Shown: piece by piece, positions 15,089 through 62,286 of the stretch
Layout of the letters: each line of letters starts with the position of its first letter
Position numbering within the stretch: the first letter of the stretch is position 1
Translations under genes and position numbers: made by a program
The notes under the pieces: model-generated
What the model was told of the DNA's origin: nothing
Seen by the model: the letters and a program-made list of their open reading frames with translations, nothing else
Databases searched by the model: none
Assembly (NCBI GenBank): GCA_951799425.1
Contig: OX637397.1
Location: forward strand, 4,393,001-4,457,000
DNA: 64,000 bases
Source: Ilex aquifolium
Lineage: Eukaryota; Streptophyta; Magnoliopsida; Aquifoliales; Aquifoliaceae
Direction of reading: 5' to 3'

Positions 15089-15315
15089 TCCAACATTAAT
15101 CCAATCCAGAACTCCAACTCAGGAATCCACTGCTCAGGATAACCACATTCCTCTCTCTCTCTCTCACACACACACACAGATTCAGCATGGGCCATCGTAA
15201 ATTCTTTATTTCATAAATGCCCCTCTCTCTGTCTCCCCCTCTCTATATTTTATAACTTCCAAACCACCACCTTAAACAAAAGCACAGAGAGAGACGTTCA
15301 CAGTCTGCACCTCCA

Positions 15316-18300: not shown

Positions 18301-19659
18301 TGGCCTCGATCGGTTCCGACTGTCCCCAGCAGAACTCCGTGAGGAATTCATGAGGCGGAAAGCAGACGCAGTGTTTGCTTTCCAGCTGAGGAATCCTGTG
18401 CACAATGGCCATGCTCTGCTGATGACTGACACGCGTCGTCGACTTCTTGAAATGGGCTACAATAACCCTGTCCTCTTGCTTCATCCACTGGGAGGCTACA
18501 CAAAGGCCGATGATGTTCCACTTAGTTGGCGAATGAAGCAACATGAGAAGGTTCGTATACTCTTTTTCTGATGTTTACCTCATTGCATTTTGTTGGGGTA
18601 TGCCCACTATCCTCACCATGGGGATGCTGGAAGTAGAGTAGTCACATGTCTCCTATACTTCCATGTTGCGTACTGTGATAACTGTCTGTCTCTCTCTCTC
18701 AAAAATACAAAAAATAAGGAACATAAATGATTGAAAATCATCAAAAGTGCATATTCTTGTTAGTGAAGAAAACGCACTGCTCCAGAGTTTGGAAATTGGA
18801 CCCCAACCTTTTACTGAGAAATACTTCCCATCTCCAAAGCACACTATGTACAATTGCCTCATGACCTCGCTGATTTTCTTTCATGATGGAACTGTTTCCT
18901 CAGGTGCTCGAAGATGGTGTTCTTGATCCAGAGACTACAGTGGTTTCTATATTCCCTTCTCCCATGCACTATGCTGGACCAACGGAGGTGCAGTGGCATG
19001 CAAAGGCTCGGATAAATGCAGGTGCAAACTTTTACATTGTCGGACGGGACCCAGCTGGAATGAGCCATCCGGTGGAGAAAAGAGATCTATATGATGCTGA
19101 TCATGGGAAAAAGGTACTGAGCATGGCTCCTGGATTGGAGCGGTTAAACATACTCCCTTTCAAGGTATACAAACCACCCTTGTTGCAATGATGATTTCTT
19201 TCGTTATATTTTTGGTGAAACTTCAAGTATCTAACAGGTCTCTGTATAACTGCAGGTGGCTGCATATGATAAGACTCAGAGCAAAATGGCATTTTTCGAT
19301 CCATCAAGGCCTGAAGATTTTCTCTTTATCTCAGGGACCAAGGTATCTTTTCAACAGAGTACGCATAGATTCTTTGAATAATAAGAAGAGAAAGTTGCAC
19401 GAAACAGTTTAAAAGAAACAAGAAAACTGGAGGGAAAAATGCATTACATTCAGGTTTTATAGATTTTATTTTTGTTTCTGTTGGTGTGTGTTCTAGCTGA
19501 ATACTTGCATTTGTCTTGCAGATGCGAACTCTTGCGAAGAACGGGGAAAACCCTCCTGATGGATTTATGTGCCCTGGTGGTTGGCAAGTCTTGGTGGAAT
19601 ACTATGATAGTTTGGCTCCCTCTGAGAATGGCAAAGTTCCTGAACCTGTCCCAGCATAA
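15316..19659 (+). CDS. APS: ATP sulfurylase, plastid type (five exons)
   Basis: Catalyses ATP + sulfate to adenosine 5'-phosphosulfate + PPi, the entry step of sulfate assimilation. Exons that splice in frame at GT-AG borders: 15316-15812, 18145-18550, 18904-19164, 19256-19342 and 19522-19659, giving 462 residues, close to Arabidopsis APS1 (463). Residues 1 to about 50 are rich in Ser, Thr, Pro and Lys and poor in acids, as in a plastid transit peptide. The mature part shows the family motifs [10 protein letters not shown] (nucleotide-binding HxGH), HPLGG and GRDPAGM, and ends GFMCPGGW...PEPVPA. Intron 1 is unusually long (2.3 kb). Plants have several APS paralogues and I cannot say which this is. 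No frame breaks; it appears functional. Expression is probably limited by miR395 (see 15640). Confidence 0.96.
15640..15660 (+). promoter_or_regulatory. miR395 target site within the ATP sulfurylase coding region
   Basis: The 21 bases from CAGTTCCTCC to AACACTTCAT, encoding QFLQTLHF, match the known miR395 site in Arabidopsis APS1/3/4 except for the first base (C for G), as remembered. They pair with the miR395 sequence with few mismatches, none in the seed-facing or cleavage-centre segment apart from a probable G:U pair. miR395 is induced by sulfur starvation and cleaves APS and SULTR2;1 transcripts. Pairing was judged by eye. Confidence 0.85.
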
Positions 19660-35519: not shown

Positions 35520-38500
35520 TCAGATAGGCATACCCTTCGGAACAATTTGATCCTTGAGCCACATGTAAATTGGAACTAGGACAAAGTAGGTTGCTGCAAT
35601 TGCACCGAGAATGAAGCGCAAGAGAAACACAAATGGATTCACCGGCTTCTCTACATCCTCTGCCTTTGGACCCAGCTGTGACACGAAACACGTCTCAGAA
35701 CTCTTATGAAAACAAGAAATTGAAGGAAAGGTTCGTAAGTAAAAACAATTGATGCACTTGTTGCTGAATTTAACTCCAAAAATACTCATAATACAATGTG
35801 CTAAAGATCAAATCTCGACATCCGCTAATTTGACATTTCCTTTCAAGAAGCAGTGTAGTCCATTTCTAGAAAGTGAAGCCAGATACCAACATACATTTCA
35901 CAAGATTAACTCTCCAAAATGAAATTCATTAGGAGATTACATAAAACTAAGAAGTCTGAGTCACAGAAGCCTTCTTGGATTTCTCTTGGTGAGCCAATCC
36001 TTTTCCAGGGTTTTGATTTGCATGGGATTCTCCTTTTGTATGTTAGCCCAAACTTAATCAAACCTGTTTAGCAATGCACATGCCCTTTTAATAAGCATTT
36101 GTCCTGCCAGTTAAATTGTATCTATCATCTCTAGCAGATAACTAAATTCAAACAGAATTCTTTCAGAAATTGAAACCTTTACCATTGCTAATGCTAGGTA
36201 GTCAGTGAACCACCTAGTAGTCTGTTCACAGCCCTGTTCACAGAACACTGACAGGGATGGAAAGAGCAAATCTGCAACAAGATAACACCACCCTCTCCAA
36301 CTATCCACAGGCATCCATCATTTAGTGATGTTTAAAAGATAAGGAGATGTTCCCCAGCCTTAGAGGCGGTTTCAGCATTGCAATCCTTTTTGCCCTCTAA
36401 ATATCTTTACTATTCATCACTTGATGTACAGAATGATATTTTGTCACCTATTTTAGCGAAAGACGGAGTGAACCTTAAACAGGATTCATTATATTGAATG
36501 ATCATTACAATCTCAAGTCTAAAAAATTTCTTGGTGCCTAAAGCTACCACTGTGCAAAAGTGAAAGTTCAATGAGCAAAGCCTTTACCAGTTGTTCCTTG
36601 TACCAAATTTATCAGTTGCTTTGTGCTTAAACATTTTCTCAAAATTTTTAAATGTTTTAAGGTAGATTAATGGGGGTGACAAAAAATTCAGAACCCAATT
36701 CCACATCCTTTCTCATTTTCTTTGCTTTTTTTTCCTTGTTTAACCTTCCTAAATATAATCAGATTTGGCTAATGCTTTCACTGTAATATATGTATTTTAT
36801 GATTCTCAATAGTCGTTGCTTGGATTAGTCAAACAATGCTCGGGTTGGCAAGCACGAGAACAAGGATTTGAGTGTGAGAGCAACCACTTTGTGCAAAAAT
36901 ATGCCAAAATGATTAGGGTGGCATCCAGTATGTGCCTTTAAGCACTCAGGCAACAGGCTTAAAACTCCACAAATTTTTTTTTTTTTGGGTAAGTAAAAAA
37001 AAAAACTCCACAACTCAACAGATGTCTATAGTGTAAATTTATTGTATAACAAAATTCATTGTAAGAAAGCAGTAGCAACTATGAGAATCTCTAATTAAGA
37101 CCCACAAACCTCAAGTAGAACTATCAAGATGAACTGAGCCCCTATCCCAAATTGACCTTGTAAACAGAGAACTTGCGAGGAGAATTCACCACACTTTCTT
37201 ATCATCCACAATACATGAACACCACTGATGTTTCCTTAAAGATGAAAGACCACTACATTTACATGATCCTAACCACATGATCACTGCCCTGAAGCAGTAA
37301 AAAACTCGCAAGAATTTAAGGTTGTGTTGATATGAAGGTGTGACATTATTTTTAGGCATCACAAAAATGAAGCAAATAAAGCAACAAAATGAATATATTT
37401 TCATGTAGCCGTACCCATGAAAAACACACATATAATGAACAATGCATTTCAGCTACCTGAAGGGGAGAGTCTCCTGACAGAGGCTTCACACCAGTCACAG
37501 AGCAACCCATGATCAGGCCATGTCGACGGACGCCTCGGTACCATTTTGGACCAATCCTCTTTAGTTGAACATCTTTGAAACCAGCCTTTTGAAACCACTC
37601 AATGTACTCCTCTTCTTTTGGGAAGAGCATCCACACATCTGCAAAAAAGCGGGACAGCCAAAACGTTGGGTACACAGGGCCAATTAAGCAGGCTTTTCCC
37701 CCTATCTTGAGTACCCGGTATGCTTCCTTGATGCCTCGCTGTGGATCTGGCCAGTACTCAATGCTGAGGAAGATAATGAACACATACATTATAGACAAGC
37801 TATTGTAAGAAAATGTTTTCTCATATTAGGGAAAAAAAAATCAGCAGTAACAATCGTCAGCTGTTGCGTGAATGTATGTGTGATTAGCATGATTCAAGGT
37901 CACAATATTGGCCATCGACTTAGAGCACATTGAGACGCATTGATCGGAGTGTTGTGGAACCGTATTGTGGAACGACATCAGATGAAAGGCAAGAAATGGT
38001 AGATTAAAAAAAAAAGTTAAGCATAACAATAGATTTAGGGCATATCACGGCATCATGGAAAACTATCAGGTGATATATTGTGATTCAATGATGATAAGTC
38101 AAACGACTAGGTAAGTTATTTGAGATGTCTCCAAGTCAACCATGAGTCAAGTGAGACTTGTGGTCTACACGGAATGTGTATCACAGCACGAAAGGAGTCA
38201 TTCTAAATACGACTCGACCTAGTCATACTGGTATTGACTAATATGCTATCATGCCAAAAAGAACAAAATTAAAAAATCAAAGTGAGGATTGTTACTTCAC
38301 ATCATCAACAGCATATGCCACACCACAACAGCATCTTAATCTTCTTTTTCTTAGTTTTCAAAAATCAATTTTGATAAACTCATAACCGAACATCTACAAA
38401 AGTACATCAAATTCCAGTTTCATTCCAAACTTATAAATGTTGCAACAATTTATCCTTATTCCCCAACTTGAGACTCTGTAAATGCCACCTTTGGCTTCAA

Positions 38501-39095
38501 AAACAGAACCATAAAAAGTAAATAAGAGAAATTACCTTCCAGCAGAAATGTATCTATCAGCATAATCAGTGGGGAAAGGAAGATCCTCAGCATCACCCTC
38601 AATTATCTTGCATTCCTTCAAAGGCTCCTTCTGCTTAGCCTTGGCCAGCTGATGAGGTGACTGGTCCAAAATTGTCACATTCTTGGCATCAACATGCTTG
38701 ATTATACCAAGAGTGGTGAACCCAGTGCCACCACCCACATCAACCACTGTCATATTCCTATCATAAAGATCAGCAGGCTCTAGAGCCTCATCCCTCATAT
38801 CTTCAGTCCAATGGCCAGGGTTTATAACATGATCATAAACTATAGATAGGAACCTATAGAACCAAAATGCCTCTTTTTTGTGTTGTATGAACCTAGGCTG
38901 AGAAACAGGTCTTGAGGAAGATAAACTGCACTTTAGGGTTCTTGTTTTGGCATTGAAATTCCTAGTATAAGACACTAAACCCTTGTTCAGAAAGCATTTT
39001 CTGTGAAATTCTGACCCAATAAAAGCTAACCCCGTTGGAGTTCTTCCACTAATGAGGTTGAGATTTTCAGCTCCATTGATCATTGAAGAAGCCAT
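35520..39095 (-). CDS. VTE3: MPBQ/MSBQ methyltransferase (three exons)
   Basis: Transfers a methyl group from S-adenosylmethionine to 2-methyl-6-phytylbenzoquinol and the solanesyl analogue in tocopherol and plastoquinone synthesis at the plastid inner envelope. Exons 39095-38536, 37763-37457 and 35675-35520 join in frame, giving 340 residues against 338 in Arabidopsis VTE3/APG1. A Ser/Asn/Arg-rich transit peptide covers about residues 1-55. The conserved block begins near QPRFIQHKKEAFWFYRFLS. The SAM-binding motif is VVDVGGGTGFTTLGI, followed by DQSPHQLAKAK and EGDAEDLPFPTDYADRY. A hydrophobic C-terminal segment (FILGAIAATYFVLVPIYMW) matches the family's envelope anchor. An in-frame upstream ATG at 39128 would add 11 residues; the MASSM start is preferred because it matches relatives. 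Intron 2 is 1.8 kb. Confidence 0.97.
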
Positions 39096-39955
39096 GAAAT
39101 GATGAAAATAAATCAAACCCAGAAACAAATTCTAGTGCTTTGGGGGGATTTTGTTATCAAATTTTGAGAACCAGAGAGCAAACCCAGATGCAATCTTGAG
39201 TGAAATTAGGCTTTAGTGTAGTGTGTAATGGCTAAAAATTGGTTCTTTTCCAGTGGTGTAGTTCCTTTACAGAATATGTATGTTTCTCATAAAGCACATT
39301 TCTAAGCGTAGTCAAAGGATGGCTTACCAATTTGATTGCACTAGCAAGAAAGTTCAGTTGGAGAGAAGTACAGAGGTGGTGACTTGAGCAGAGAGAGAGA
39401 CTCGTCTGTTGCTCTGTTGAAAGAGAGTTATCACAGCCACATGTTTGAGGTACTGAGAAGACTGAACGTTCAGGGCCAGAGAATGATAGGAATTAAGAAC
39501 TTCAATACGACGTCGTATCTATTGCTTAAGGCCTAAGGGCATCTTTAATAGTTTAATTCTCCCCCACTTCGTTTGATTTTATAATCTTTCCTAACCAGAA
39601 ATCCCATATCAGGAACAAACATGCAACTTCAGGCCATAGTTTTATTAGAAATGTTGTTATAGCGATATCACGTGTCAATAATAACGTAGGCAGCATTGTT
39701 ATATATTTTTCGTCAAGAATTTGGGCTATTAAAAACTTAACAATATCATATCCTAAAATTTACGGGTTTGCAAAATAACAAATTTTTTTTTTTTTGATCA
39801 AAATCAAAATAACAAGTTCAAATCTGTCGTTTGTAATCTATATGAAGTTTTGGGCTAAGCTCATGGTGCTGTTCAATTAGTGTTAAAAATTGGACATGGT
39901 CTGAATATTGGCCATTTTGATGGGATGGTCTGAATCACCTTTTGTGTATTGTGGG

Positions 39956-45970: not shown

Positions 45971-46184
45971 CTCATATCCTACCAAAATTTATAAGTTTTT
46001 TTAATTATATTATAATTTTTTGAGGTAAAATTTATAATTATACAAAATATTACAAATATTAAAATACTAGTTATTTCTCATGTCTTAAGGCACAGAATAA
46101 TAAAAAAAATAGTCAATAATTAGTATATTTATATTCACACCCAAAATCAATTTACAAAGATAGAGAATAGAGAAATGAATTTAA

Positions 46185-46740
46185 GCACTGGTTGTAGTGG
46201 GGGATAGTGGTGGGCGACAGTGGTGGTGATGGGAAACGGTGATGGTTGTGATGGGTGATAACGATCGGTTGTGATGGTAGTAGTCGTGGGTAGCAATGGT
46301 GATAGTAATGGTGGGGCGGTAGGGTGGTAGTGGTGGGACAATGACGGTGATGATAAGGTGACAGTAGCAGTTATAGTTGTGGGGGGGTGGTGGTAGTGGA
46401 GATGGTGGTGGTGGGGGCAGTGGTGGGTTAGCGACAGTGGTGATTGTGGTTGTTATGGGAAGAGGTGGTGGTGGGGTAACAACAGTGGTGGTAGTGGTTA
46501 GGCGATGAGAGTGGTGGTGGTGGTAATGGGGGGGGGGGGGAGATGGTGGTGGTAGGGCGATGGGGGTAGTGGTAGTGGTGATGGTGGTGGTAGGGTGGTG
46601 ACAGTAATGGTTGTTGTTGTGACATGGGTGGTAGTATGGTGGCGATAGCAGGGGTAGTGGTGATGTTGGTGGTGGTGGTGGTGGTGGGGCGGTGGGGGGG
46701 AGGAGTGATGGTGGTGGGGCGGTGGGATGGGACAGTTCCA
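46185..46740. repeat. (GGT)n-like imperfect simple-sequence block, about 550 bp
   Basis: On the plus strand the block is almost entirely imperfect GGT/GAT/AGT triplets. The long frames on the minus strand (Pro-Pro, Thr-Thr, His-His runs in several frames at once) follow from the repeat. Several overlapping frames being open simultaneously argues against a protein-coding gene. Confidence 0.9.
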
Positions 46741-48807
46741 AACACTATTTTTTTTTTTTAAAAGTATTTATGAGAAGTTATAAGTTCTAAAAGCACTTTT
46801 AAAAAATTAACCCAAACACACTCTTAGAGGTCTATTTTCCTAATAAATTTGGGGTGTTAATATTAGTCGTCGGATTAACTTTAAAATAAAATTTAAAAAA
46901 ATCTCAACCGTGAAAAACAAAAATCATTTTGTTTATCTTTTAAAATTTGAATTGTATTGTACTTTATTATATAGATTAAGATAGATCATAAAAATTATAA
47001 TTGAAAAATAAAATTATAATTTTTAAACGGTACTTTTATATCTTTCGAATGTAAAATTATAATTGATCTGAAAGTGTTCATGGCCGATCGTAACATTTTA
47101 TCATAGATTATAAAATATCTTAAAGAAAAAAGGACCTCAATTAAAGGTAGTACTGGTCACATGGCAGTTAGTGGGTGGCTCTTTTTGAACCCTGATAAGA
47201 TATTTTTTTGATCCGAAAACCCTGAGATTCTGAGAAGATTGGGGCTCCTCTCAATTATATATTTTGTCTCACTATAAATAATTGGAGAAGAATATGTTCC
47301 CAACAAAAATGGGTTCATAATCGCCAAATTTTATAAATTTATATATAATTTTTTAGATTTATTTACAATAGAAAATTTTGAGATCAATTCTAATATATTA
47401 CGATTGATCCTAAAAAATTTATAATCTTTGGGATTATGTCACAATTTTTAGGGTTTAAATTATAATTTTTTGGGGGTCATAATAATTTTAAAATCGAGCT
47501 TATGTACTTCCAAAAATTGTAACACCTAAAAATTATTTTAAAAAAAAAATTCACAAAATGTGTACATGTTATACGATGCCAATTTTTTTCGATGTTTTAA
47601 TCTTCTCCTAAATAATAATAGGGTGAATGACACTTTATACACTAAAAAATTCTTAAAATTTTAATTTACACCCTCAAATTAAAATTCTAACATTACACCC
47701 TCAATTAGGAAAAAAGAAGTAATAATATAGTCCAATCGTTGCCTTTTTTAATTCTTTTTTTGTCATATAATCCTATTTTTGTATATAATTTTTTGCATAA
47801 TACTCTATTTTAAGTGTTTTCAATAGAAATTTGGTACTCAATTTTCTTAAAATGGAATATTTTGCTATTTTTTTGTCCAGTTGAGGGTGTCATATGAGAT
47901 TTTTAATTTTTGTAGGGTACAAAATGAGAACACGAAAATCTTTCAAAATACAAAATGTACCCTTAATTATATCATTTATTATCGCTCATTTAAAATTTTA
48001 TGATGAGGGTTCTTGCACATTTCCACTTTGCCATATTGCTCTTATATTAAATTATGACTTAATCTAATTAAGTTAAGATTCAATGATGCTTAAAAAATCA
48101 ACTCAAGATCCGAGGTTTTTGTATTGATTTTAATTGACTGAGTTGAATCGTGTCTTTTTCATTTTTCAGATATTGAACACGGTATCTTATTCTTTTACCT
48201 CAGCTCGATACTTATGTTTTCGAAAAATATTTTACATATATTTTTTAAACTCTTTACTGCTGATATCATAAAACCGGCAAGAGCTTAAATTATAAAATTC
48301 AACAAGATGAAAATACAACCACAATATAATTTCTATCAGGGACGAAGGATTTTTTTGCAACGACCAGATGAATTTTTAAGTGACTAAGTTTTTTGTTGTT
48401 AATAGTCTAGTTTAGTGGTAATACTTTTGTTGGTCACGCAAAAAATTTCAAAGACGAGCCTACTGTGACAAATTGGGGACAAAATTTTTTTCAAAAACTT
48501 TTAGTGGCGAATTATTCATGTTTGCATATCTTCAGTCCTAGATAAAGAAAGACATGTTCAACTCGCAAGAGAATTTCAACAGAAGTCATAAACCATTGAA
48601 TCTTCATTTTATTGAATGCATAAACAACAGGACAAAGTATTTCAACAAGCATAATCTTCCCACAAGCATAATCTTCCCACAGTGTCACAAACTAGGCAGG
48701 ATCCTTATTCTAAAAACCACATACAATACTCCCAAACAAACCAAATCAAAAGCAAATTTTTTTATTTTTATTTTCGAAAACAAACTTGAGAAAACATTTG
48801 AAGTACA
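46741..48807. other. Intergenic DNA with foldback arms
   Basis: No gene. At 47625-47960 there are inverted ACACTTTATAC/GTACAAAATG and ACACCCTCAA/TTGAGGGTGT segments, probably another long-TIR element of about 340 bp. The last 250 bases belong to the 3' region of the first PR-10 gene. Confidence 0.45.
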
Positions 48808-48987: not shown

Positions 48988-49953
48988 CCTTTTCTTTGCC
49001 TGCCTTGATATCTTCTTCTTTGAGCACAAAATCACCCTCTGTATAATAGTTGCTGGTCACCTTAGAGATTGAACCACCATCCGAGGCCTGCTCGAATTTG
49101 ATCTCGTATGTTATTTTCTGGAGATTTTTTTCCAAGGAATCACCCCCGATCAATGTGTAATTGTATGTGTATGTTTTTTCATTGAGTTCATCTATGCGAT
49201 ACTTCACAGAATTGAATTCTCTACCTGCATGAAAAAAAGACTCATGTTAGTTCATGTTTATCATTGAATAATTGGCTTAGGGTTGTCCATGGCCCGAGCC
49301 CAAACCTAGAAAAATTCAGGCCTTAGGCCATGCCCCATCCCACAAAGACCGGGCTGGGCTGTGAGTTTTCACCAATCACCTTGTCCCGTCTCGTAAAATG
49401 GCTCTCAGGTGGGCAATATTACGAGCCGAGCCAGACTGAGCTGCGTGCTGTTTTTTTTATTAAAAAAAATAGTGAAAATATAGCCTAAAAGTCGCAATTT
49501 ATAACTTATTATTTGTTACTTATACAATTTAAGAACCAAAGCTTAAAATTATAAACTAAAAAATTGAATATTAGGTGGCTTTATAGGCCAAGTTTCGAGC
49601 CAGCTCATGGGCTTCTGGAAGGGTTGTGGCCCGTTTGTGGAGTCAGTGGGCCTCTTTTTGGGCCAAGGTGGACCACAGGTCATTTTTTGGACTGTCACAA
49701 GTTAGCCCAGCCCATGCACAACCATATGAAAAATAATGTGTGTACGAAAACATATGTATATGATGTAACCTTCAACGAAGTTGATTTGCTTAATGCTTCC
49801 TGCCCCTCCATCGCCCTCAATGAATTCGATGCTCTTAATACCTTGTGGCATGAGTTTCGGAATCAAGTTGTGAGAGTCGATGATCGACGCCTTGAATAAC
49901 CTGGAAGGTGGGATCGGGGAAGCGTACTCCTCGGTGAAGGTGGTGACACCCAT
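48926..49953 (-). CDS. PR-10 / Bet v 1-family protein, array copy 1
   Basis: Exons 49953-49770 and 49224-48926 give 160 residues, the normal PR-10 length. The family folds into a small cytosolic protein with a hydrophobic cavity for cytokinins, flavonoids or other ligands and is induced by stress and pathogens; some members are allergens. Visible are the start [20 protein letters not shown], the glycine-rich loop EGDGGAGSIK (residues 46-55), and the C-terminal helix [20 protein letters not shown]. The single intron splits a Gly codon after residue 61, the classic PR-10 position. The intron is 545 bp, enlarged by an insertion. A tandem paralogue lies about 3.1 kb upstream. Ligand unknown. Confidence 0.95.
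49278..49735. mobile_element. Transposon-like insertion in PR-10 copy 1 intron
   Basis: The insertion starts TAGGGTTGTCCATGGCCCGAG and ends with a sequence whose complement is TATGGTTGTGCATGGGCTGGG, an imperfect inverted terminal repeat. The interior is rich in GGCCC and GAGCC words and much more GC-rich than the intron edges. Without it the intron would be about 90 bp, like copy 3 (97 bp). No clear target duplication was found. PR-10 copy 2 retains a TAGGGCTGTCCATG fragment at 52876, possibly the same ancestral insertion. Confidence 0.55.
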
Positions 49954-50055
49954 GATTTTTCTGGGATTTTTGAAGGTAGGTGAGGAACTAGAAAGAAGGG
50001 CTAATTGAGTTTTTGTGGTGCTTCTTTGTTGGAAAGAAGAGACTACTAGAGAATT

Positions 50056-50064
50056 GTATTTATA
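50056..50064 (-). promoter_or_regulatory. TATA box of PR-10 copy 1
   Basis: TATAAATAC on the minus strand about 105 bp upstream of the ATG, in a block (TATTTATAG..TGAAG on the plus strand) shared by all three PR-10 genes. Confidence 0.7.
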
Positions 50065-50411
50065 GACTGAAGTAAAAGGCTCTTTATTTTTAAAATATTG
50101 TTTATAATATTTTGGTAATAGGATTGGTGATGGGCCTGATGGCCGAATATATTCGGTTGCTTGTCCATTTTGGATGTCATCGGCCATAGAAAGCTAAAAA
50201 CAATCACAAAATAACTTGTTCAGTGTCCATAGTGCATAGAATTCCTCCCAAGTGAATCATTATTGTAATTTTCAAGACCATGTCTTAGGACAGAGAGAGA
50301 GAGCTAAAATCCATGTCATTGTGGATAGAATTTGTCTACATATTTTGAATATACATATGTACAGGACAAATCCTTGGATCTCCACTAGATATAAACAAAT
50401 AGACAAAATAA

Positions 50412-50624
50412 TTTTTTTTTTTGTTTATGGTTTGTCTGGGCAGTTTACGTGCATTTTGACTAATCCTCTCCAGTCCGGTCAAAGGCATGTCATCCCCGTG
50501 GAGACTAGGGTATTCATAAGAGATAAATCGTTCATGACCTAGCCCAATGAATTGTTAAGATTCAAATTCAAGACGTTTGAGTTTACAACTCATCTCTATT
50601 TACCATTTAAACTATCATTGGGGC
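50412..50624 (-). mobile_element. tRNA-derived SINE (family 2), full copy with 12-bp TSD
   Basis: A poly-T run at the left end is the poly-A tail of a minus-strand element. Read from 50624 downward it has an A-box-like TAGTTTAAATGGTAAATAG, a degenerate B box (GAATTTGAATC) and the family body (CATGAATACCC, GTAAACTGCC). A perfect 12-bp duplication, TAGACAAAATAA, flanks it (50400-50411 and 50625-50636). It interrupts upstream DNA that is continuous in the paralogous region of PR-10 copy 3 (about 56290-56380). Confidence 0.9.
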
Positions 50625-50916
50625 TAGACAAAATAACTTTAAGACAACAGAGAGAATCTCTCATATAGCAATTGGGAAGCGAGAGTGATTTTCTTTCTTT
50701 GGTGGCATACTTTACTTTAACGATAGATGATTAAACTTGAATGAAATTCATACGTTTTGAATCTTAGTGCTTAAAAAAATTGGAGGAAATAATATGGACA
50801 TTCCTTTGTTTTGTAGTAAATACATTGAGACTCCCAAATGAAAGACAAAGAGGGATCCTTGTAGAGATTGACAATTATTTCATGATCCTTAGAGGAAAGT
50901 TTTATAGCTTTTTGAG

Positions 50917-51097
50917 GGATCCGGCTCCTCTACTTTTAATTTTTAACAACAGAAGTGATGTTGATTAAAACAACGTCGTTTTGCATCAAAAAGTCGTCAT
51001 TCTGTTTAACAAAACAACATCGTTTTAGTGCAAAACAACGTTTTTTAATCAACAACACTTTTGCTGTTGATTTTCTAACAACAGAGGATCCTCACCT
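50917..51097. mobile_element. Foldback MITE, 181 bp, 9-bp TSD
   Basis: The two halves are inverted copies (GTGATGTTGATTAAAACAACG against the complement GTGTTGTTGATTAAAAAACG) around an AACAAAACAACATCG loop, with GGATCC near each end. The perfect 9-bp duplication CTTTTTGAG flanks it (50908-50916 and 51098-51106), consistent with a Mutator-like origin. Confidence 0.8.
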
Positions 51098-51106
51098 CTT
51101 TTTGAG

Positions 51107-52235
51107 TGGTGTGATGCTGATGATTCCAATTTTTTTATGAGGAAATGGTTCAAGTTGAACTACTCGCCCGCTTGAATAAATAAAGCTTCTAATAAATTAA
51201 TTACAAATTTTTTGAAGAGTTGATACATTTCAGGTCACGGTTGTCACGTCTACTACTGCAATTTTGTAGTTTCTTTTTAGAGTTCCAGCCGAGGTTAGAC
51301 TTTATATCAAAATATGACACGTGGAAAGTCATTTTATTATATTGGTTTACTTTTCTAATTGTTTATATGGTTAATGACTATAAATAACTTAAATCAAGAT
51401 CTACATTTAGTTCACTTCTCAATACAGTATCGATAAGTTATTTTTTGGTACCATAACTAATTCCTTCTAGCCCTCGGTGAAATCGAACAAGCTGAAATGT
51501 GCTGTGAAGATTTAATATTACCGTTGTCAACAGTTTTTACTTCTACAAGTTATAGTCCTGAGCAGCCTTGCAATGCACTTGCCTTGCTGCAACAATTCCT
51601 TGTTTTTGAAGTTTATGTTGTCTTAAACTAATTTTTCAAGACTTCTGTTAGCATCCCTAAGTGTGCCACATCAATCAAGTCGATTTTCACAGATGAATTA
51701 CTCACATGCACATATCATTTGGTATTAGGGTCTGATAACACCTCGAGTATGATCGGAAATAAGATAAGATCGAATTCAGTACTTGTAGTATTAGATTAAA
51801 ATCACCGATAGACTTAGTGGGTAAGCGTCATGTTGGAGGGTTAGAGTTGATAGTAATTAAATAGTTACATGATGTGAAGGAAGTGCTTAAATTTTGAATG
51901 CAAAATTACATTTTGCATAAAATGCTTCTCACTTATCATTTGCTTATTATTTCCAAGTTCCAAATCAAACCATACAGGTTTTCACGAAAGTCATAAACAG
52001 TGAAATCTTTCATTTTATTTCTGCATTTTCATCCAATTACAGTACAAAACATTTCTTAAAAGGAACATAAATCACAATGTCTATACCCACAACATCACAA
52101 GCTGGGTAAGTTCCTTATTCTAAAACCAGATGCAACATTACAACCAAACAAACCAAATCAGAAGCCAAAGTTTCAGACAAACAGACTTGAACAAACATCC
52201 AAAGAGCATTAGTCACAAGACAAGAACACTGAAGA
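51107..52235. other. Intergenic DNA between PR-10 copies 1 and 2
   Basis: No gene. The right end (from about 52000) is the PR-10 copy 2 3' UTR, similar to the equivalent regions below copies 1 and 3. The remainder is unremarkable AT-rich DNA. Confidence 0.5.
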
Positions 52236-53106
52236 TTAGGCGTAGGCGTCGGGGTTTTGAAGAAGATAGGCTTCCACAACCTTGTACATTGCCATGACCT
52301 TTTCTTTTCCTGCCTTGATATCATCTTCTTTGAGCACAAAATCACCATCTGTATAATAATTGCTGGTCACCTTAGAGATTGAACCACCATCCGGTGACTG
52401 CTCGAACTTGACCTCGTAAGTTATTTTCTGGAGCTTTTCAGCCAAGGAATCACCTCCAACTAATGAGTAGTTATACGTGTATGTCTCTTCATTGAGATCG
52501 TCGATGCGATACTTCACAGAATTGAAATCTCTACCTGCATGTAAAAGGCTCATGTTAGATTCGTGTTTTAGGATTGTGTATAGGACTGTCAATCGTATTA
52601 GGTGAGGGGAGTTTATGTCGAGTTGTGGTGAATTCGTGTCAAAAAGTACTCCACTTATATCTAATAGATTTATTAATCCGTGTTTATTGAATCATGTGAT
52701 ATTGGATTTGTATCGTATAATATATAAATGATTTGTGTCGTGTATTTCTTAATTGTGTCGTGTAGGAATCGCTCGTTTACAAAACGAGTTGTTTAAGAAA
52801 GACTTAAACTTTCTAATTTCATGTCGTGTTAACAAATCGTGTCATATTTTGACACCTCTAATTGTGTATAGAGCGTAGGGCTGTCCATGATCAGGACACA
52901 AAGCATAACTAAGTAATCTGACCTTCAACGAAGTTGATTTGCTTAATGCTTCCGACCCCTCCATCACCTTCGACGAATTCGATGCTCTTAATACCCTGTG
53001 GCATGAGTTTTGGAATCAAGTTGTGAGAGTCGATGATCGAGGCCTTGAATAACCTGGAAGGCGGGATCGGGGAAGCGTACTCCTCGGTGAAGGTGGTGAC
53101 ACCCAT
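52236..53106 (-). CDS. PR-10 / Bet v 1-family protein, array copy 2
   Basis: Exons 53106-52923 and 52534-52236 give 160 residues. The glycine-rich loop is [10 protein letters not shown]. Compared with copy 1 it has [26 protein letters not shown] and [12 protein letters not shown], and it ends QNPDAYA. Splice position and phase are identical to copies 1 and 3. The 388-bp intron contains a complete 280-bp hAT element plus its 8-bp duplication; without these it would be 100 bp. No lesions seen, so it should be functional. Which copy is expressed where cannot be judged from sequence. Confidence 0.95.
52581..52860. mobile_element. hAT-type MITE inside PR-10 copy 2 intron, 280 bp
   Basis: The left end TAGGACTGTCAA and right end TTGACACCTCTA (complement TAGAGGTGTCAA) form imperfect TIRs. 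The perfect 8-bp duplication ATTGTGTA occupies 52573-52580 and 52861-52868. The interior carries GTGTCGTGTA and GTTTACAAAACGAGT subterminal motifs shared with copies near 45.9 and 60.0 kb. It lies wholly within the intron and away from both splice sites. Confidence 0.9.
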
Positions 53107-53203
53107 GACTTGTGTAGGGTTTTGAAGATTGGAATGCAACTACAAAGAAAAGGTTGGATTTGGTGGTAACTCTTTGATGGAGAGAAGAGAAGTCGAGAGG
53201 ATG

Positions 53204-53212
53204 GTATTTATA
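53204..53212 (-). promoter_or_regulatory. TATA box of PR-10 copy 2
   Basis: TATAAATAC on the minus strand about 100 bp upstream of the ATG. The surrounding TATTTATAGGTTGAAG (plus strand) is shared with copy 3 exactly. Confidence 0.7.
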
Positions 53213-53469
53213 GGTTGAAGTAAAAGAACCCTTTGTTCTTAAAGTTGTTTCCAACATTTTGGAAATAGCATCAGGGGACGGCTAAATATATTCCAATGCT
53301 TGTTCATTTACAAAAAGAACAAGATCAGTTTCCAAAGTTTATAGAATTCATCCAATGTGAATCATTATTCTAGTTTTCAAAGACCGTTTGCTAGGACCAT
53401 CACACACATTGACACTAAAAAAAACACGCACACTCAGAGAGAGAGAGAGAGAGAGGGGCAATTTTATAA

Positions 53470-53765
53470 AAAAAAATTATACCGTACCACCGATTATAAC
53501 TTTTTATGATAAAATTATACCTTTAAAAACAGAAGTTACAACTGCTCAAGGAAAGACTATGATCGATTATGGGTTTCCTTTGAGCAATTATTACTTCTCA
53601 TTTCTCTCTTAGAAGTTTTAAGTTGACTTTTAAAAGTTGTAACCTAATTTTTGAAAGTTGTAACTTCAGTATCAATCACATTCTCCCATGATTGATCATA
53701 CTCTTTAAAACTTGTAAACTTAACTTTAAAAAGTTGTAATTTTTTGTACGGTACCGCTAACAAAT
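53470..53765. mobile_element. Probable foldback MITE upstream of PR-10 copy 2
   Basis: Near-inverted ends: TTATACCGTACCACCG on the left and the complement of GTACGGTACCGCTAAC on the right, with several internal AAGTTGTAAC/GTTACAACTT pairs. No unambiguous target duplication, so the boundaries are approximate. Confidence 0.5.
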
Positions 53766-55147
53766 TTTCAAAATGATTTTTAAAGCAAAAAAAAAAAAAA
53801 AATCCATTAAAATAAAAATATATATTTGAAGACTGTTATACGCGGAATTAAACTTGGAAGAAGAAAGTAAGTCTGGAAAAAAAAAAGTTAAAATTAATAC
53901 ATAAAACACTCGCCATTTAAAAATACTAAATAAAAGCAAAAAAAGCAAAAACTAAAGCATTGATAGATCACTATTGTAATGAACAATCATTTTTTTTTTA
54001 ATTTAGATGAATGCATCTTTAACAGACGAGAAATTAGAAAGCACAAACAAAGAGGTAAAGAAAAATTCAAAAAAAAAAAGTACAATAGAACCCCTAAAGA
54101 GATGGACATAAGAAATCAGACTGATTCTTTTGGCAATTTATTGGCCCCTTTGATACCTTCCAAAAATAAAATTATTGACCCTTGACTCTTAGATAGAATT
54201 TTAAAAAAATCAAGGATGACCAATCAAGCTCGGTGTTGTTGCTTCGCAACAACATTCAACTGGCACAAAGTTAGGGATGGCAAAGCCTGCACATTTTTAA
54301 GTTTGGACAAGGTGAAGAATTTGACTCCGACTAATATGATTGTCCATGGTGTAACGAGCACAACCCAAATAACCCTCGGGTACAACATGCTATAGAGGCC
54401 TGTGGATCACTGAGAGGCGTACATATAAATGCTACTCCTCGTTGCCATCTTTGACTGGGACGACCTGGATCCATCACCATCAATTAGTGCCTTCTACCTT
54501 AGCACCCGTTGGACCTTTTATTTGAAGGAAAAGTATGGCAGTAAGATCATATAGCATGCTGACAATGCTAAGGTGCTCTAAGCTATATCAAAAACACAGT
54601 GGAAATGAAAATTTCTATCTCTGCACTTAAAGGAGCTGCAAAAGAATGATCTCCCACTAGACTTTAGACCTCATCACCTCATGTTCAAAAATAAAGATTG
54701 GGTTGTATGGACTTTGATGGCCTTATATTCTCTTAGAAAATTCTACCACGTGAAACGCTCATTTAATTAAACATTAGCTTTAGATCTTCTCAACTGCATT
54801 TTTTTGGATTTATGGTAACAATACAAACTTTAAATATAATAGTTATTCACTAGCATGTGCATCGTTTGAACCCCAGTTTCAAGCTACCAAGGAAGTACAA
54901 TCAAATCGACCTGTCACTTTAACCACTGAAACTTTATTTGCTTTATGGTTGCAATTTTTCATAACAACAGGACAAAGCTGAATATAGATCACATTCTTCC
55001 CCAACTTATCACTAGCTGGGTAAGATCCTTATTCTAAAACAAGACTCAATACAACCCAAACAAACCAAATCAAAAGCCAAAGTTTCAGACAAACAGACTT
55101 GAACAAACATACAAAGAGCTTTAGTCACAAAACAAGGACACCGAGGA
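53766..55147. other. Intergenic DNA between PR-10 copies 2 and 3
   Basis: A stretch from about 54230 to 54720 has more even base composition and fragments that look like decayed coding sequence, but frames are broken and I could not assign a family. The last 200 bp is the PR-10 copy 3 3' UTR. Confidence 0.4.
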
Positions 55148-55727
55148 TTAGGCATAGGCGTTGGGATTTTGAAGGAGATAGGCTTCGACAACCTTGTACA
55201 TTGCCCAAACCTTTTCTTTGCCTGCCTTGATATCCTCTTCTTTGAGTGCAAAATCACCATCTGTGTAGTACTTGCTGGTCACCTTAGAGATAGAACCGCC
55301 ATCCGGTGACTGCTCGAACTTGATCTCATAAGTTATTTTCTGGAGCTTATCTACTAAAGAATCACCCCCAACCAATGTGTAATTGTATGTGTATGTCTTT
55401 TCATTAAGCTCGTCGATGCGGTACTTCACAGTATTAAAATCTCTACCTGCATGAAAAAGACTCATGTGAGATTCATCTTTGATGATACAGTGTATATATA
55501 TATATATTGGATAGAAAAACTGTGACAATATGGTGAATCTAACCTTCAACAAAGTTGATTTGCTTAATGCTTCCAGCCCCTCCGTCACCTTCGATGAATT
55601 CGATGCTCTTAATACCCTGTGGCATGAGTTTTGGAATCAAGTTGTGTGAGTCGAGGATCGATGCCTTGAATAACCTGGAAGGTGGGATCGGTGAAGCGTA
55701 CTCCTCAGTAAAGGTGGTGACAGCCAT
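55148..55727 (-). CDS. PR-10 / Bet v 1-family protein, array copy 3
   Basis: Exons 55727-55544 and 55446-55148 give 160 residues. The second residue is Ala (MAVTTF) where the other copies have Gly. The loop EGDGGAGSIK is intact. Distinct residues include SKYYTDGDFALKEEDIK and EKVWAMYKVVE, a Met-to-Trp change in the C-terminal helix that lines the ligand cavity. The 97-bp intron is compact and free of transposons, so it is the best model of the ancestral intron. Upstream sequence to about 56380 is recognisably homologous to that of copy 1. Confidence 0.95.
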
Positions 55728-56844: not shown

Positions 56845-57465
56845 CTAGTCACACACCGGTGGTGGAATTTCCGGCGACAGTGGGTCTGGTGGCCCAACAT
56901 CAGGTGGCTTCGGCGGGATAAAATCAGGAGCACGCGGCGGAAACACATCCGGCGGCCCCTGCGGGATGTCGGGACCTGGCCACGAAGGCATCGGCGGCTG
57001 CGGAATGTCAGGAGGCGGCAGCGACGGCATCGATGGCAGAGGAATGTCAGGAGGCGGCGTCGATGGCATCGGTGACCCCGGAAAATCAGGCGTCGGCCCT
57101 GGAGACAGCGGCGGAGTATCAGCAGGCTTTTCTGGCGGAATTGGGTCGTAGTCCCTAACATTAGGGGTCCAGGACCAAGGCACTTCCGGAGGCACAGCGG
57201 GGTTGTGCTCGGGTGGCTCAGAGGGAAACTCCGGCGGAGTTCTTAGAGGCACGTCAGATTGGTGGTGACGCATTTGGCAGGAAATTAGAGAGATTGAAGC
57301 TGGGCAGCCATGGATAGGGTTGATTTCTTTGAGAGAGATGGCATTGGAAGATTGAGACACAGGTGATGGTTTGGTTATGGTTGAGATTAATGGAGAAAAA
57401 GGGATAGTTTTCTTCATGAGGTTTAATGAGACTGCAGAGACGGTGGACATGTTGCAAAACATCAC
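56845..57465 (-). CDS. Small proline-rich protein of unknown function, copy 1
   Basis: A single-exon frame of 206 codons; I do not recognise a named family. Residues about 1-60 are rich in Ser, Thr, Ile and Lys and almost free of acids, so they could be an organelle-targeting or signal segment. Residues about 75-206 are a proline-rich array of PD[IF]P, PPMPS and PPK repeats, with EVPWSWTPNVRDYDPIPPEKP before them. The C-terminal signature GPPDVFPPRAPDFIPPKPPD is nearly identical in the paralogue at 58335. Start choice is uncertain: ATGs at 57465, 57462, 57450 and 57417 are all in frame. The one at 57450 (MSTVS) aligns with an ATG in the paralogue, and MKKTI (57417) is the first segment shared at protein level. 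The upstream RY/ABRE block suggests ABA- or seed-linked expression. Confidence 0.75.
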   Translation of the reverse strand: MMFCNMSTVSAVSLNLMKKTIPFSPLISTITKPSPVSQSSNAISLKEINPIHGCPASISLISCQMRHHQSDVPLRTPPEFPSEPPEHNPAVPPEVPWSWTPNVRDYDPIPPEKPADTPPLSPGPTPDFPGSPMPSTPPPDIPLPSMPSLPPPDIPQPPMPSWPGPDIPQGPPDVFPPRAPDFIPPKPPDVGPPDPLSPEIPPPVCD

Positions 57466-57545
57466 CTAATTTTTACTAGTAAAAATGAAGTAATATAAAA
57501 GGTGGGTTTGCATGAGGTGGAAGATTAAGTGAGTAGGAGAAAGAT

Positions 57546-57582
57546 GTTGCATGTGGGTGTTTGACACGTGCATATACGTGGC
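57546..57582 (-). promoter_or_regulatory. RY plus double ACGT-core promoter block, copy 1
   Basis: A 37-bp block that is identical at 32 positions to the block upstream of the paralogue. It contains an RY motif (TGCATG, 57548-57553), an ACACGTG G-box/ABRE and a second TACGTGGC ABRE within GACACGTGCATATACGTGGC. RY plus ABRE is the known arrangement at ABI3/bZIP-controlled seed maturation promoters. It lies 80-120 bp upstream of the ATGs. Confidence 0.75.
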
Positions 57583-58334
57583 TTTCCTAGGACACCTGGA
57601 CGGCTTACAGGAAAGTGTCAGCATATGGAATTAAAAAATAGAATAAATTATACCAATAGTCCCCAAAATTTATCACTTATTATAATTTGATCCTTAAACT
57701 TTTAATTTTATTAATTTCATCTCTAAAATTTAAAAATTCAACTAATATAATCCTTAACACTAATTAGGACAAAAAATATCACGTACAAATCCCATGCACC
57801 TTAAGAAATAGTTTTGATATCTTTTAGACAAAAGAGAGGGTAAATGAGTTTGCATTGCTCTATGAACTTAATGGGGATTATCCTCAGCCTATGGTCTAAT
57901 GATTAATGAAATAAACTTAGAATTTCCCAAATCATAAAAGATGTGGACGGTACCAACACTATACTCGAAACTTAGATTAAGTGAAACGAGTTATAAATTC
58001 AGATATCTTAAACTTAAATTTTGACAATCTCTTGAGATCGTAACTGATATGTCTTTAATTGAGTAGAATAATGTTTTTTATATTTAATTTACTAATTGAT
58101 AGTAAATTCCAGTACCCCTAAATATCATGACCCCAACAAATCTGATAGTTATGATGATAAATTAAATCAATAAATTATATTATTAAATTATATCTCGATA
58201 ACATTAATGTATTTGTAGAATGCAACAATTTCAATATTAGACAACCCTAACTGGGTAATTGTTTACATGTGTATCACAAGCTTTCCACCACCTAGGGAAC
58301 AAGGGACATAAACGAGGAGGCCACCGACTTTCGA
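57583..58334. other. Intergenic DNA between the proline-rich genes
   Basis: A foldback-family arm (AAATTATACCAATAGTCCCC, near 57645) and a fragment of SINE family 2 (ATAAATTCAGATATCTTAAAC with TTGACAATCTCTTG, near 57990-58040) are visible. No gene. Confidence 0.45.
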
Positions 58335-58781
58335 TTATCCGGCCACATACTTTGGGGGTGGCGACCCAGGCTCCGGCGGCTTTGGCGGTATAATCTCAGG
58401 TGCACGCGGCGGAAATACTTCTGGTGGCCCCCGAGGGATGTCTGGACCGGGCGGCGAAGGAGTCGGCGGCCGTGGACCATCAGGCCGAGGTGGGGACGGC
58501 GTCGGTGGGCCTGGAAAATCTGGGCCTGGATTCGGCCCAGGAGATGATGGTGGTGGATCAGAAGGCTTTTCTGATAGTAACAATGGATCAAAGTCTGGAA
58601 CATTAGGAGTCCGAGGCTGCTCCGGTGGCGCCAAGGTAGCCTCCGGAGGCGCGTGAGATGGATCATGGGCTAGCTTTTGACCCGAAAGAAAGATTGGATT
58701 CAGACTGTAAGATTGAAAGAGTGATGAAGCTTTTATTTTCGTTGAGGTTGATGCATAAAACTGGATCGTCTTCTTCATCAC
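58335..58781 (-). CDS. Small proline-rich protein of unknown function, copy 2
   Basis: A single-exon frame of 148 codons, paralogous to the gene at 56845. Shared features are the MKKTI start with a Ser/Thr/Lys-rich first 40 residues, the TPNV[RP]D[YF]DP segment, EKP.D.PP.SPGP repeats, and the C-terminal G-P-P-E-V-F-P-P-R-A-P-E-I-I-P-P-K-P-P signature. It lacks several of the PPDIP repeats of copy 1. An upstream ATG at 58823, aligned with the 57450 ATG of copy 1, opens only an eight-codon uORF ending at 58797, so the main start is 58781 or 58778. Function unknown; possibly a hydrophilic seed or dehydration protein judging by the promoter. Confidence 0.75.
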   Translation of the reverse strand: MMKKTIQFYASTSTKIKASSLFQSYSLNPIFLSGQKLAHDPSHAPPEATLAPPEQPRTPNVPDFDPLLLSEKPSDPPPSSPGPNPGPDFPGPPTPSPPRPDGPRPPTPSPPGPDIPRGPPEVFPPRAPEIIPPKPPEPGSPPPKYVAG

Positions 58782-58796
58782 GAGGTTGGATGAGAA

Positions 58797-58823
58797 TCAT
58801 GAGATTGTAGAGACACTGCACAT
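58797..58823 (-). other. uORF in the leader of proline-rich copy 2
   Basis: ATG at 58823 followed by seven codons and TGA. The wording aligns with the translated N-terminus (MSTVSAVS) of copy 1. The reading frame was lost here through small changes between this point and MKKT, leaving a short uORF 15 bp before the main ATG. Confidence 0.6.
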
Positions 58824-58914
58824 ATTGGCAAGAACAAAAGAATTTTTGGTAGTTGGCGATGAAATGGTGCTTTTTTCCTGCATGCGGTGAAATATAAGAA
58901 CACGGCAATAATAT

Positions 58915-58951
58915 GGTGCATGTGGGTGAATGACACGTGTACATACGTGGC
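58915..58951 (-). promoter_or_regulatory. RY plus double ACGT-core promoter block, copy 2
   Basis: The same block as at 57546-57582, with an RY motif TGCATG (58917-58922) and GACACGTGTACATACGTGGC. Only five substitutions separate the two blocks, while the surrounding promoter has diverged much more. A hAT element begins 13 bp further upstream (58965). Confidence 0.75.
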
Positions 58952-61502: not shown

Positions 61503-62286
61503 ATGTCTACACCAGCGATTGATCCAGCAGATCCTCTGTTTCTTCACTCTTCTGATCATCCTGGACTGATCCTTGTTCCGAAGGTCTTAGATGGAACCAA
61601 TTATGCCATGTGGAAACGATCAATGCTAATCAGCCTTAGTGCCAAAAAACAAATTGGGATTCATCGAAGGAACAGTTACCACTCCAGAAGCAAAAGGTCC
61701 CACATACTCTTTATGGCAGCGTTGCAATGCTATGGTACTCTCTTGGATATTCAATTCTCTAAGTCAAGACCTTATGCACAGTGTTCTCTATGCTGAAACT
61801 CCCTCAGAAATTTGGACAGATCTTCAAGATAGATTCTCTCAAGGTGATTTTTCTCATCATTATCAAACTAAACGATCCATTGTTGAACTGAAACAAAATC
61901 AAGAATCCATTTTTTCTTACTATACAAAGATGAAAATGTTGTGGGATGAGCTAACCACCTGTAGCCCCTCAATCACCTGCACGTGTGGAGGTCAAAAAGA
62001 TCAAAAAGAAAAAGAAGAAAGAATTCGCCTTGGTCAATTTCTTATGGGACTCAATGAGACATATTCAGCTGTACGAGGACAAATTATGCTCATGCATCCT
62101 TTACCAACTGTCAAAAAGGCATATTCACTTTTATGTGAAGAAGAAAAGCAGCGAGGCCTCACTGAAACAAAGAGCAGTGATCTTATTCATGCCATGAGTA
62201 TTCACACTTATGACAACTCCAAGGAGTCACAAACTACGGCCTCAAGACAACGAAAAAAATGGTCCTCCACTCATTCCAAGCCTTAA
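61503..62286 (+). pseudogene. Copia gag, frameshifted, with in-frame stop
   Basis: The reading frame starts at ATG 61503 with a Retrotran_gag_3-like N-terminus (LHSSDHPGLILVPKVLDGTN). An A6 run at 61644-61649 shifts the frame, and the gag core (UBN2-like, with ETPSEIWTDLQDRFSQ and LGQFLMGLNETY) continues in the frame that uses codons starting at 61639. That frame meets TAA at 62284-62286 just before the zinc knuckle. Either lesion would stop a full Gag-Pol polyprotein. Confidence 0.85.

What the first reader, a model, noticed from the sequence alone, without database searches (positions are those of the whole stretch)
57546..58951. Tandem proline-rich genes of unknown function under a conserved RY + double-ABRE promoter block
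Two adjacent paralogues share a proline-rich C-terminal signature (GPP[DE]VFPPRAP[DE]xIPPKPP[DE]) that I cannot assign to a named family, and a 37-bp promoter block with 32 identical positions containing TGCATG plus two ACGT cores. RY plus ABRE is the known arrangement at ABI3/bZIP-regulated seed maturation genes. Inference: a small seed- or dehydration-responsive protein family. Conservation of the block against a diverged background suggests selection.
Basis: partly seen in the sequence, partly recalled or inferred. Interest (0 to 1): 0.75.

Follow-up and report, generated by a model that had tools for sequence, protein, structure and literature searches.

The report
Seed-type promoters on unnamed proline-rich genes
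Two neighbouring plant genes for an unnamed, probably unfolded, proline-rich protein each carry the same seed-maturation style control switch, which makes them good candidates for a little-studied seed or drying-protection protein family; nothing about their expression has been measured here.

Summary
Two adjacent minus-strand paralogues (g1 56845-57450, g2 58335-58778) each carry an upstream block identical at 32 of 37 positions; 500 shuffles reached at most 25. A 34-base form of it occurs only at these two places in the 800-Mb genome at up to 3 mismatches. It exceeds fourfold coding sites in identity (30 of 59). It holds an RY, a G-box/ABRE and a second ABRE, with another RY 38-39 bp on; g1 also has the exact napin proxB element.

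New test in the same genome: an RY within 50 bp of an ACGTG core, in the 300 bp upstream, is found in 9 of 10 intact oleosin genes and 0 of 30 SAUR genes; g1 and g2 both have it.

The protein has no Pfam match. Its 17 named relatives are all asterids. The N-terminus resembles a transit peptide, not a signal peptide; the rest is acidic polyproline. 'Vegetative cell wall protein gp1-like' is probably a wrong name.

Best reading: seed-maturation genes under B3/bZIP control for a disordered, probably organelle-imported protein. Expression, orthologous promoters and localisation are untested.

The parts
56845..57450 (-). g1 coding region, single open frame, 201 aa from the Met that matches relatives (an in-frame Met 12 nt further up, at 57462, is also possible)
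   Evidence: open frame and alignment to relatives
58335..58778 (-). g2 coding region, single open frame, 147 aa, starting at MKKTIQF
   Evidence: open frame and alignment
58788..58814 (-). remnant of the ancestral g2 start: eight codons beginning with ATG, then in-frame TGA; now an 8-codon upstream ORF
   Evidence: translation and tblastn of g1 running through it
57546..57582 (-). conserved block of g1: ABRE, G-box/ABRE, proxB element, RY
58915..58951 (-). conserved block of g2: ABRE, G-box/ABRE, RY
57575..57582 (+). TACGTGGC, ABRE core of g1
   Evidence: sequence, core position
57565..57570 (-). CACGTG G-box of g1
   Evidence: -120
57556..57564 (-). TCAAACACC in g1, identical to the napA proxB element
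   Evidence: -114; element named in PMC2770497 (passages)
57548..57553 (-). CATGCA, first RY of g1
   Evidence: -103
57509..57514 (-). CATGCA, second RY of g1, upstream of the TATA-like site
   Evidence: -64
57492..57497 (-). TATA-like site of g1 (TATATT)
   Evidence: -47; motif match only
58944..58951 (+). TACGTGGC, ABRE core of g2
   Evidence: sequence, core position
58934..58939 (-). CACGTG G-box of g2
   Evidence: -161
58917..58922 (-). CATGCA, first RY of g2
   Evidence: -144
58879..58884 (-). CATGCA, second RY of g2, downstream of the TATA-like site
   Evidence: -106
58891..58896 (-). TATA-like site of g2 (TATATT)
   Evidence: -118; motif match only

Best explanation
A tandem pair of seed-maturation genes. 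Shown from sequence: each promoter carries a compact, conserved module of two ABRE/G-box cores and one RY, plus a second RY 38-39 bp on. Inferred: B3 factors (ABI3/FUS3/LEC2) on the RY and bZIP factors on the ACGT cores switch both genes on together in the maturing embryo. Shown from sequence: the product is a small protein of about 30% proline, whose acidic polyproline part follows a basic, Ser/Thr-rich, acid-poor N-terminus without a signal-peptide-like core; the structure model gives no confident fold. Inferred: it is imported into mitochondria or plastids, loses that N-terminus, and acts as an extended, hydrated, LEA-like chain during seed drying. Likelihoods: regulatory half about 0.8; organelle import about 0.5; protectant role about 0.35.
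For: Block 32/37, not reached by 500 shuffles; a 34-base form found only at these two genes in 800 Mb at up to 3 mismatches; more conserved than fourfold sites, p = 4e-4, with NG86 dS about 0.89. RY within 50 bp of ACGTG in 300 bp upstream: oleosins 9 of 10 intact genes, SAUR 0 of 30 fetched (95 matched), LEA_1 2 of 4 first exons (8 matches in all), g1 and g2 2 of 2. Published grammar: napA B-box and RY/G complex, RY close upstream of the TATA box (PMC2770497 passages); RY and G-boxes abundant in ABI3- and FUS3-bound regions (PMC8940821 passages); RY enriched in the first 200 bp of Arabidopsis ABI3-regulon genes (PMC7187197 passages). N-termini: 13 of 19 with no acidic residue in the first 40 and 6 with one, highest 10-residue hydropathy mean 0.33 to 1.98. 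AlphaFold on 23 sequences: mean pLDDT 64.7, pTM 0.19.
Against: No expression, binding or localisation data. The strict grammar ACGTGKC-RY-RY does not by itself pick out seed genes: 18 of 31 matches look like one dispersed repeat, and among 12 other loci read by eye only g1, g2 and L024 (an ORF that looks like a lectin receptor kinase, recalled, not scanned) precede a recognisable ORF. In g2 the second RY lies downstream of the TATA-like site, unlike storage-protein promoters. proxB is exact only in g1. The YN00 estimate (dN 0.45, dS 0.36) contradicts NG86 (0.28, 0.89), so the divergence of the background is rough. No Pfam LEA match; g1 has only 3.0% glycine. The transit-peptide reading rests on composition alone; g2 has lost about the first 11 residues. 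One control oleosin (L039) lacks the grammar at every candidate start; half of the LEA_1 controls lack it. DSSP gave no output for the model, so absence of secondary structure is not established.
Confidence: 0.6

Rival explanations
1. Vegetative ABA or drought genes: the ACGT cores are the working elements, bound by ABF-type bZIPs in leaves and roots, and the RY copies are secondary.
For: Two ABRE cores per promoter. [quoted passage not shown]
Against: Two RY per promoter within 150 bp of the ATG; RY near ACGTG also marks 9 of 10 intact oleosins of the same genome, while the LEA_1 genes L057 and L058 have ABRE without RY.
Confidence: 0.2
2. Secreted hydroxyproline-rich cell-wall proteins, as the name given to four relatives ('vegetative cell wall protein gp1-like': P0003, P0009, P0015, P0017) says.
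For: About 30% proline; source names.
Against: No strongly hydrophobic core in the N-termini of 19 sequences (highest 10-residue mean 1.98), SP3+ motif in only 2 of 19, no PPV[YE]K in any of 19, regular acidic residues instead.
Confidence: 0.12
3. The shared block is only shared descent or local gene conversion, not selection.
For: The genes are tandem paralogues, so some promoter identity comes by descent; YN00 gives a lower dS of 0.36.
Against: Third codon positions are only 53% and fourfold sites 51% identical; the block is 86% identical, its similarity fades on the gene side and stops on the other, and all motif cores except proxB are unchanged between the copies.
Confidence: 0.08
4. Pollen or tapetum genes using the same RY/ABRE modules.
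For: PMC7187197 passages note that several ABI3-regulon genes are expressed in stamen or maturing pollen.
Against: No positive evidence here; not tested.
Confidence: 0.05

Closest known systems
napA (Brassica napus 2S albumin) promoter B-box and RY/G complex
   Same: G-box CACGTG, two RY CATGCA, and in g1 an exact proxB TCAAACACC beside the ACGT element
   Different: all elements lie within about 75 bp; ABRE TACGTGGC in place of distB GCCACTTGTC; g2 lacks exact proxB; the product is no storage albumin
Oleosin promoters of the same genome (L038-L049)
   Same: RY within 50 bp of an ACGTG core, about 90-240 bp before the ATG, in 9 of 10 intact genes
   Different: they do not carry the block itself: only g1 and g2 match its 34-base form at up to 3 mismatches
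Mitochondrial or plastid LEA proteins (for example LEA_3/SAG21; recalled, no call)
   Same: probably disordered, acid-poor basic N-terminus, predicted seed/ABA control
   Different: no Pfam match; proline-rich
Extensin / vegetative cell wall protein gp1-like
   Same: high proline; the name that sources give to four relatives
   Different: no signal-peptide-like core, hardly any SP3+ motifs, acidic residues at regular intervals

Membership tests
RY/ABRE (B3 plus bZIP) regulated seed-maturation gene | RY CATGCA within about 200 bp upstream | tested here: met
   g1 -103 and -64, g2 -144 and -106
RY/ABRE (B3 plus bZIP) regulated seed-maturation gene | ABRE/G-box core within 50 bp of an RY, as in seed genes of the same genome and not in non-seed genes | tested here: met
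   oleosin 9/10 intact (13 matched), SAUR 0/30 fetched (95 matched), LEA_1 2/4, g1 and g2 2/2
RY/ABRE (B3 plus bZIP) regulated seed-maturation gene | transcript in maturing seed | not testable with these tools
   no expression data held
RY/ABRE (B3 plus bZIP) regulated seed-maturation gene | binding by ABI3/FUS3/LEC2 and bZIP | not testable with these tools
   no DAP-seq or ChIP data held
RY/ABRE (B3 plus bZIP) regulated seed-maturation gene | block conserved at orthologues in other species | not tested
   no other plant DNA fetched; tandem order g2-g1 is implied in Ilex paraguariensis by the fused protein P0001
Late embryogenesis abundant (LEA) protein | match to a curated LEA model | tested here: not met
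   0 Pfam families at E up to 1 for g1 and g2
Late embryogenesis abundant (LEA) protein | no stable fold, hydrophilic | tested here: inconclusive
   pTM 0.19, mean pLDDT 64.7, DSSP gave no output (g1 only); GRAVY -0.50 and -0.85. A low-confidence model is consistent with disorder but does not prove it
Late embryogenesis abundant (LEA) protein | hydrophilin glycine content above 6% (threshold recalled) | tested here: inconclusive
   g1 3.0%, g2 6.1%
Secreted extensin / HRGP | N-terminal signal peptide | tested here: not met
   no 10-residue stretch above mean hydropathy 1.98 in the first 40 residues of 19 sequences; composition only, no trained predictor
Secreted extensin / HRGP | repeated SP3-5 or PPVYK motifs | tested here: not met
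   SP3+ in 2 of 19 (one each), PPV[YE]K in 0 of 19
Mitochondrion- or plastid-imported protein | acid-poor, basic, Ser/Thr-rich N-terminus ahead of an acidic mature part | tested here: met
   13 of 19 with no D/E and 6 of 19 with one in the first 40; 3-8 K/R; D+E exceeds K+R in the second half of all 19 (narrowly, 7 to 6, in g2)
Mitochondrion- or plastid-imported protein | import shown | not testable with these tools
   needs a GFP or import assay

The most novel reading that the evidence does not exclude
An asterid-specific class of seed protectant: an organelle-imported, acidic polyproline chain, chemically unlike the known LEA groups, recruited to the seed-maturation programme by a compact RY/ABRE module.
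Probability: 0.3. Interest if true: 0.6.

Novelty: new member of a known kind. Interest (0 to 1): 0.45.

Why it matters
Seed drying tolerance is usually described through LEA proteins, small heat-shock proteins and sugars (recalled). A conserved, unnamed polyproline family under seed-type control in asterids (relatives found in endive, carrot, olive and kiwifruit, among others) would be an untested contributor, and it can be tested in transformable crops. Sources currently give it cell-wall, gibberellin or hypothetical names. The in-genome comparison used here (seed family against non-seed family) is also a cheap test for other genes of unknown function.

Tried and rejected
Cell-wall glycoprotein: disfavoured on N-terminal and motif evidence. 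Known domain: none in Pfam for g1 and g2, none in PDB sequences at E up to 1 with the 23-sequence profile. More family copies: only g1 and g2 in the own genome at E up to 0.001, of 12 candidates scored. Weak tblastn matches at 46.4-46.7 kb are low-complexity proline/histidine-rich sequence, not a relative. A fold search was not run because the model has too little confidence.

Grammar pattern as genome-wide predictor: 31 places against 1 in the reversed control, but by eye 18 of them are one dispersed repeat (two pairs of these overlap). Of the other 13, 12 were read, by eye and without a family scan; g1, g2 and L024 (lectin-receptor-kinase-like ORF, recalled) precede a recognisable ORF. So the strict pattern is not a predictor and I do not use it as support. 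The third match to the looser block (L007) lies in a GT-rich stretch near what looks like retroelement remains.

Control details: of 13 oleosin loci, L047, L048 and L050 were dropped because no intact start in frame was found; in a first script L038 and L040 were read on the wrong strand, corrected. L039 fails at every candidate start. Of 8 LEA_1 matches only the 4 with a first exon were scored; one of them (L051) has a stop inside the match. Of 95 SAUR matches the tool fetched 30 and all 30 were scored; many are tandem copies, and some oleosins are near-duplicates, so neither set is independent and the p value is overstated. The 105 extra background segments (19 with any RY, 5 with the grammar, 1 with two cores) come partly from loci chosen for RY content, so they overstate the background.

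The last protein search did not list four relatives that were already in its own alignment (P0004, P0005, P0009, P0012), so its list is incomplete and absence outside asterids is not proven. Papers: in the listings (titles and starts of abstracts) I saw none that describes this family; two searches returned no paper. In PMC9104375 I searched two terms and saw one passage, not relevant. PMC10439957, which uses the phrase 'vegetative cell wall protein' six times, was listed but not opened. The library lacks most subscription journals.

Full report
The window is plant DNA. It lies at C7:4393001-4457000 of an 800-Mb genome of 103 contigs. The best named relative of g1 is a 337-aa protein of Ilex paraguariensis (94% identity over all of g1), whose sequence is a g2-like part followed by a g1-like part, evidently one gene model run across the same tandem pair. 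The window is therefore probably from a holly or a close relative; the genome itself is unnamed.

The blocks at 57546-57582 and 58915-58951 agree at 32 of 37 positions, and the similarity continues more weakly to 55 of 74, ending on a second RY. Shuffled upstream sequences never exceeded 25 of 37 in 500 trials. A 34-base pattern with 28 specified letters of the block is found twice in the whole genome at up to 3 mismatches, both here, with none for the reversed control. A 23-base form at up to 2 mismatches adds one match in a GT-rich stretch.

Selection. The two coding regions align over 143 codons with 86 identical residues; third positions are 53% identical, fourfold sites 30 of 59, NG86 dN 0.28 and dS 0.89. 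The YN00 estimate in the same call disagrees (dN 0.45, dS 0.36), so the rates are rough on this repetitive sequence. The block at 32 of 37 is more conserved than the fourfold sites (Fisher p = 4e-4) and than all third positions (p = 1.5e-4). Gene conversion confined to 37 bp is possible but unlikely.

Anatomy. Reading with the genes (minus strand), from the ATG of g1 at 57450: ACGTG cores at -129 and -119, the second inside a CACGTG, TCAAACACC at -114, CATGCA at -103 and -64, TATATT at -47. For g2 from 58778: cores at -170 and -160, CACGTG at -161, CATGCA at -144 and -106, TATATT at -118. PMC2770497 (passages) describes the napA promoter as a B-box (distB GCCACTTGTC plus proxB TCAAACACC) and an RY/G complex (two CATGCA and one CACGTG), and reports one RY close upstream of the TATA box in Brassicaceae and Fabaceae storage-protein promoters. 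g1 has the exact proxB sequence between its G-box and RY and has its second RY just before the TATA-like site. g2 has TCATTCACC instead, and its second RY follows the TATA-like site.

Control within the genome. Oleosins served as the seed family and SAURs, an auxin-related family, as the non-seed family (functions and their mostly intronless genes recalled). Scoring was the same: an RY within 50 bp of an ACGTG core in the 300 bp before the ATG. Oleosins: 13 matches, 3 without an intact start dropped, 9 of 10 positive, 3 of 10 with two or more cores. SAURs: 95 matches, 30 fetched, 0 of 30 positive, 3 of 30 with any RY (6 of 30 if the most upstream Met is taken); Fisher p = 4e-8, overstated because family members are related. 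LEA_1: 8 matches, 4 first exons scored, 2 of 4 positive, the other two with ABRE only. Random 300-bp segments of the window: about 1.1%. The PR-10-like gene starting at 55727 has none (the second PR-10 position in that output was not a start codon on the right strand and is not counted). g1 and g2 are positive with two cores each.

Published context. PMC8940821 (passages): B3 factors bind RY; ABI3 cooperates with bZIP10, 25 and 53 at storage-protein genes; RY and G-boxes are abundant in ABI3- and FUS3-bound regions. PMC7187197 (passages): RY enriched in the first 200 bp and ABRE in the first 200-300 bp of Arabidopsis ABI3-regulon genes; in Xerophyta ABRE but not RY.

The protein. Neither matches any Pfam family at E up to 1. 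Three searches gave 22 relatives, P0001-P0022: 17 named, from 16 species (of Ilex, Cichorium, Forsythia, Paulownia (two proteins), Rehmannia, Abeliophyllum, Rhododendron (two species), Tanacetum, Actinidia, Daucus, Handroanthus, Ipomoea, Tagetes, Olea and Bertholletia), all asterids (classification recalled), and 5 without a name. In the profile search 18 of 5889 candidates scored at E up to 1, the weakest at 4.4e-4. The candidate step is word-limited and missed four known relatives, so restriction to asterids is likely but not proven. The shared core reads roughly TPNVPDFDPIPPEKPxDPPPLSPGPNPGPEFPGPPxPSPP...PEVxPPxxPDxIPPKPPExGPP...PDIPPP.

N-termini and fold. Of 24 sequences (22 plus g1 and g2), 5 were left out for fused, missing or unalignable N-termini; 3 of the other 19 were trimmed to an internal Met. 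In the first 40 residues 13 of 19 have no acidic residue and 6 have one, with 3-8 basic residues; the most hydrophobic 10-residue stretch ranges from 0.33 to 1.98. That fits a transit peptide rather than a signal peptide, though no trained predictor was available. AlphaFold of g1 with 23 sequences gave mean pLDDT 64.7 and pTM 0.19; DSSP gave no output for the model, so secondary structure was not assessed. The proline-rich half scores mostly 70-85 per block, which would fit an extended chain.

g2 start. The codon matching the g1 start begins an 8-codon frame closed by an in-frame TGA, and the next in-frame Met begins MKKTIQF. P0001 likewise begins MMKKTIQF, so the shortened start is probably shared by both species. 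It leaves an 8-codon upstream ORF before g2.

Verdict. The regulatory inference survives a control that could have failed; expression is untested. The protein half is an inference from composition.

Noticed in passing
window 49702-55727 (-): Tandem PR-10/Bet v 1-like genes (at least three, from translations; label recalled, no Pfam scan run) next to the pair; the one starting at 55727 has no RY or ABRE in 300 bp.
   Followed up: partly
own genome: L009-L014, L021, L023, L026-L028, L030-L035, L037: A dispersed repeat carries mostly ACGTGTCCATGCATG followed by a further CATGCA, that is a ready-made ABRE plus RY arrangement (18 of 31 pattern matches by eye); it could seed new seed-type promoters.
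   Followed up: no
window 58788-58814 (-): Ancestral g2 start turned into an 8-codon upstream ORF by an in-frame TGA.
   Followed up: partly
P0001: Public Ilex paraguariensis gene model appears to fuse the two paralogues into one 337-aa protein.
   Followed up: partly
P0003, P0009, P0015, P0017 and P0011: Source names 'vegetative cell wall protein gp1-like' (four) and 'Gibberellin-regulated protein' (one) on members of this family look wrong.
   Followed up: partly
window 61630-62286 (+): Copia-type retroelement gag-like frame beyond g2 (label recalled from the translation).
   Followed up: no
window 15256-18571 (+) and 37352-39131 (-): Exons resembling plastid ATP sulfurylase and an MPBQ/MSBQ-type methyltransferase (labels recalled from translations).
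   Followed up: no
window 46181-46744 (-): Low-complexity proline/histidine/threonine-rich frame that gives weak false matches to the family.
   Followed up: partly
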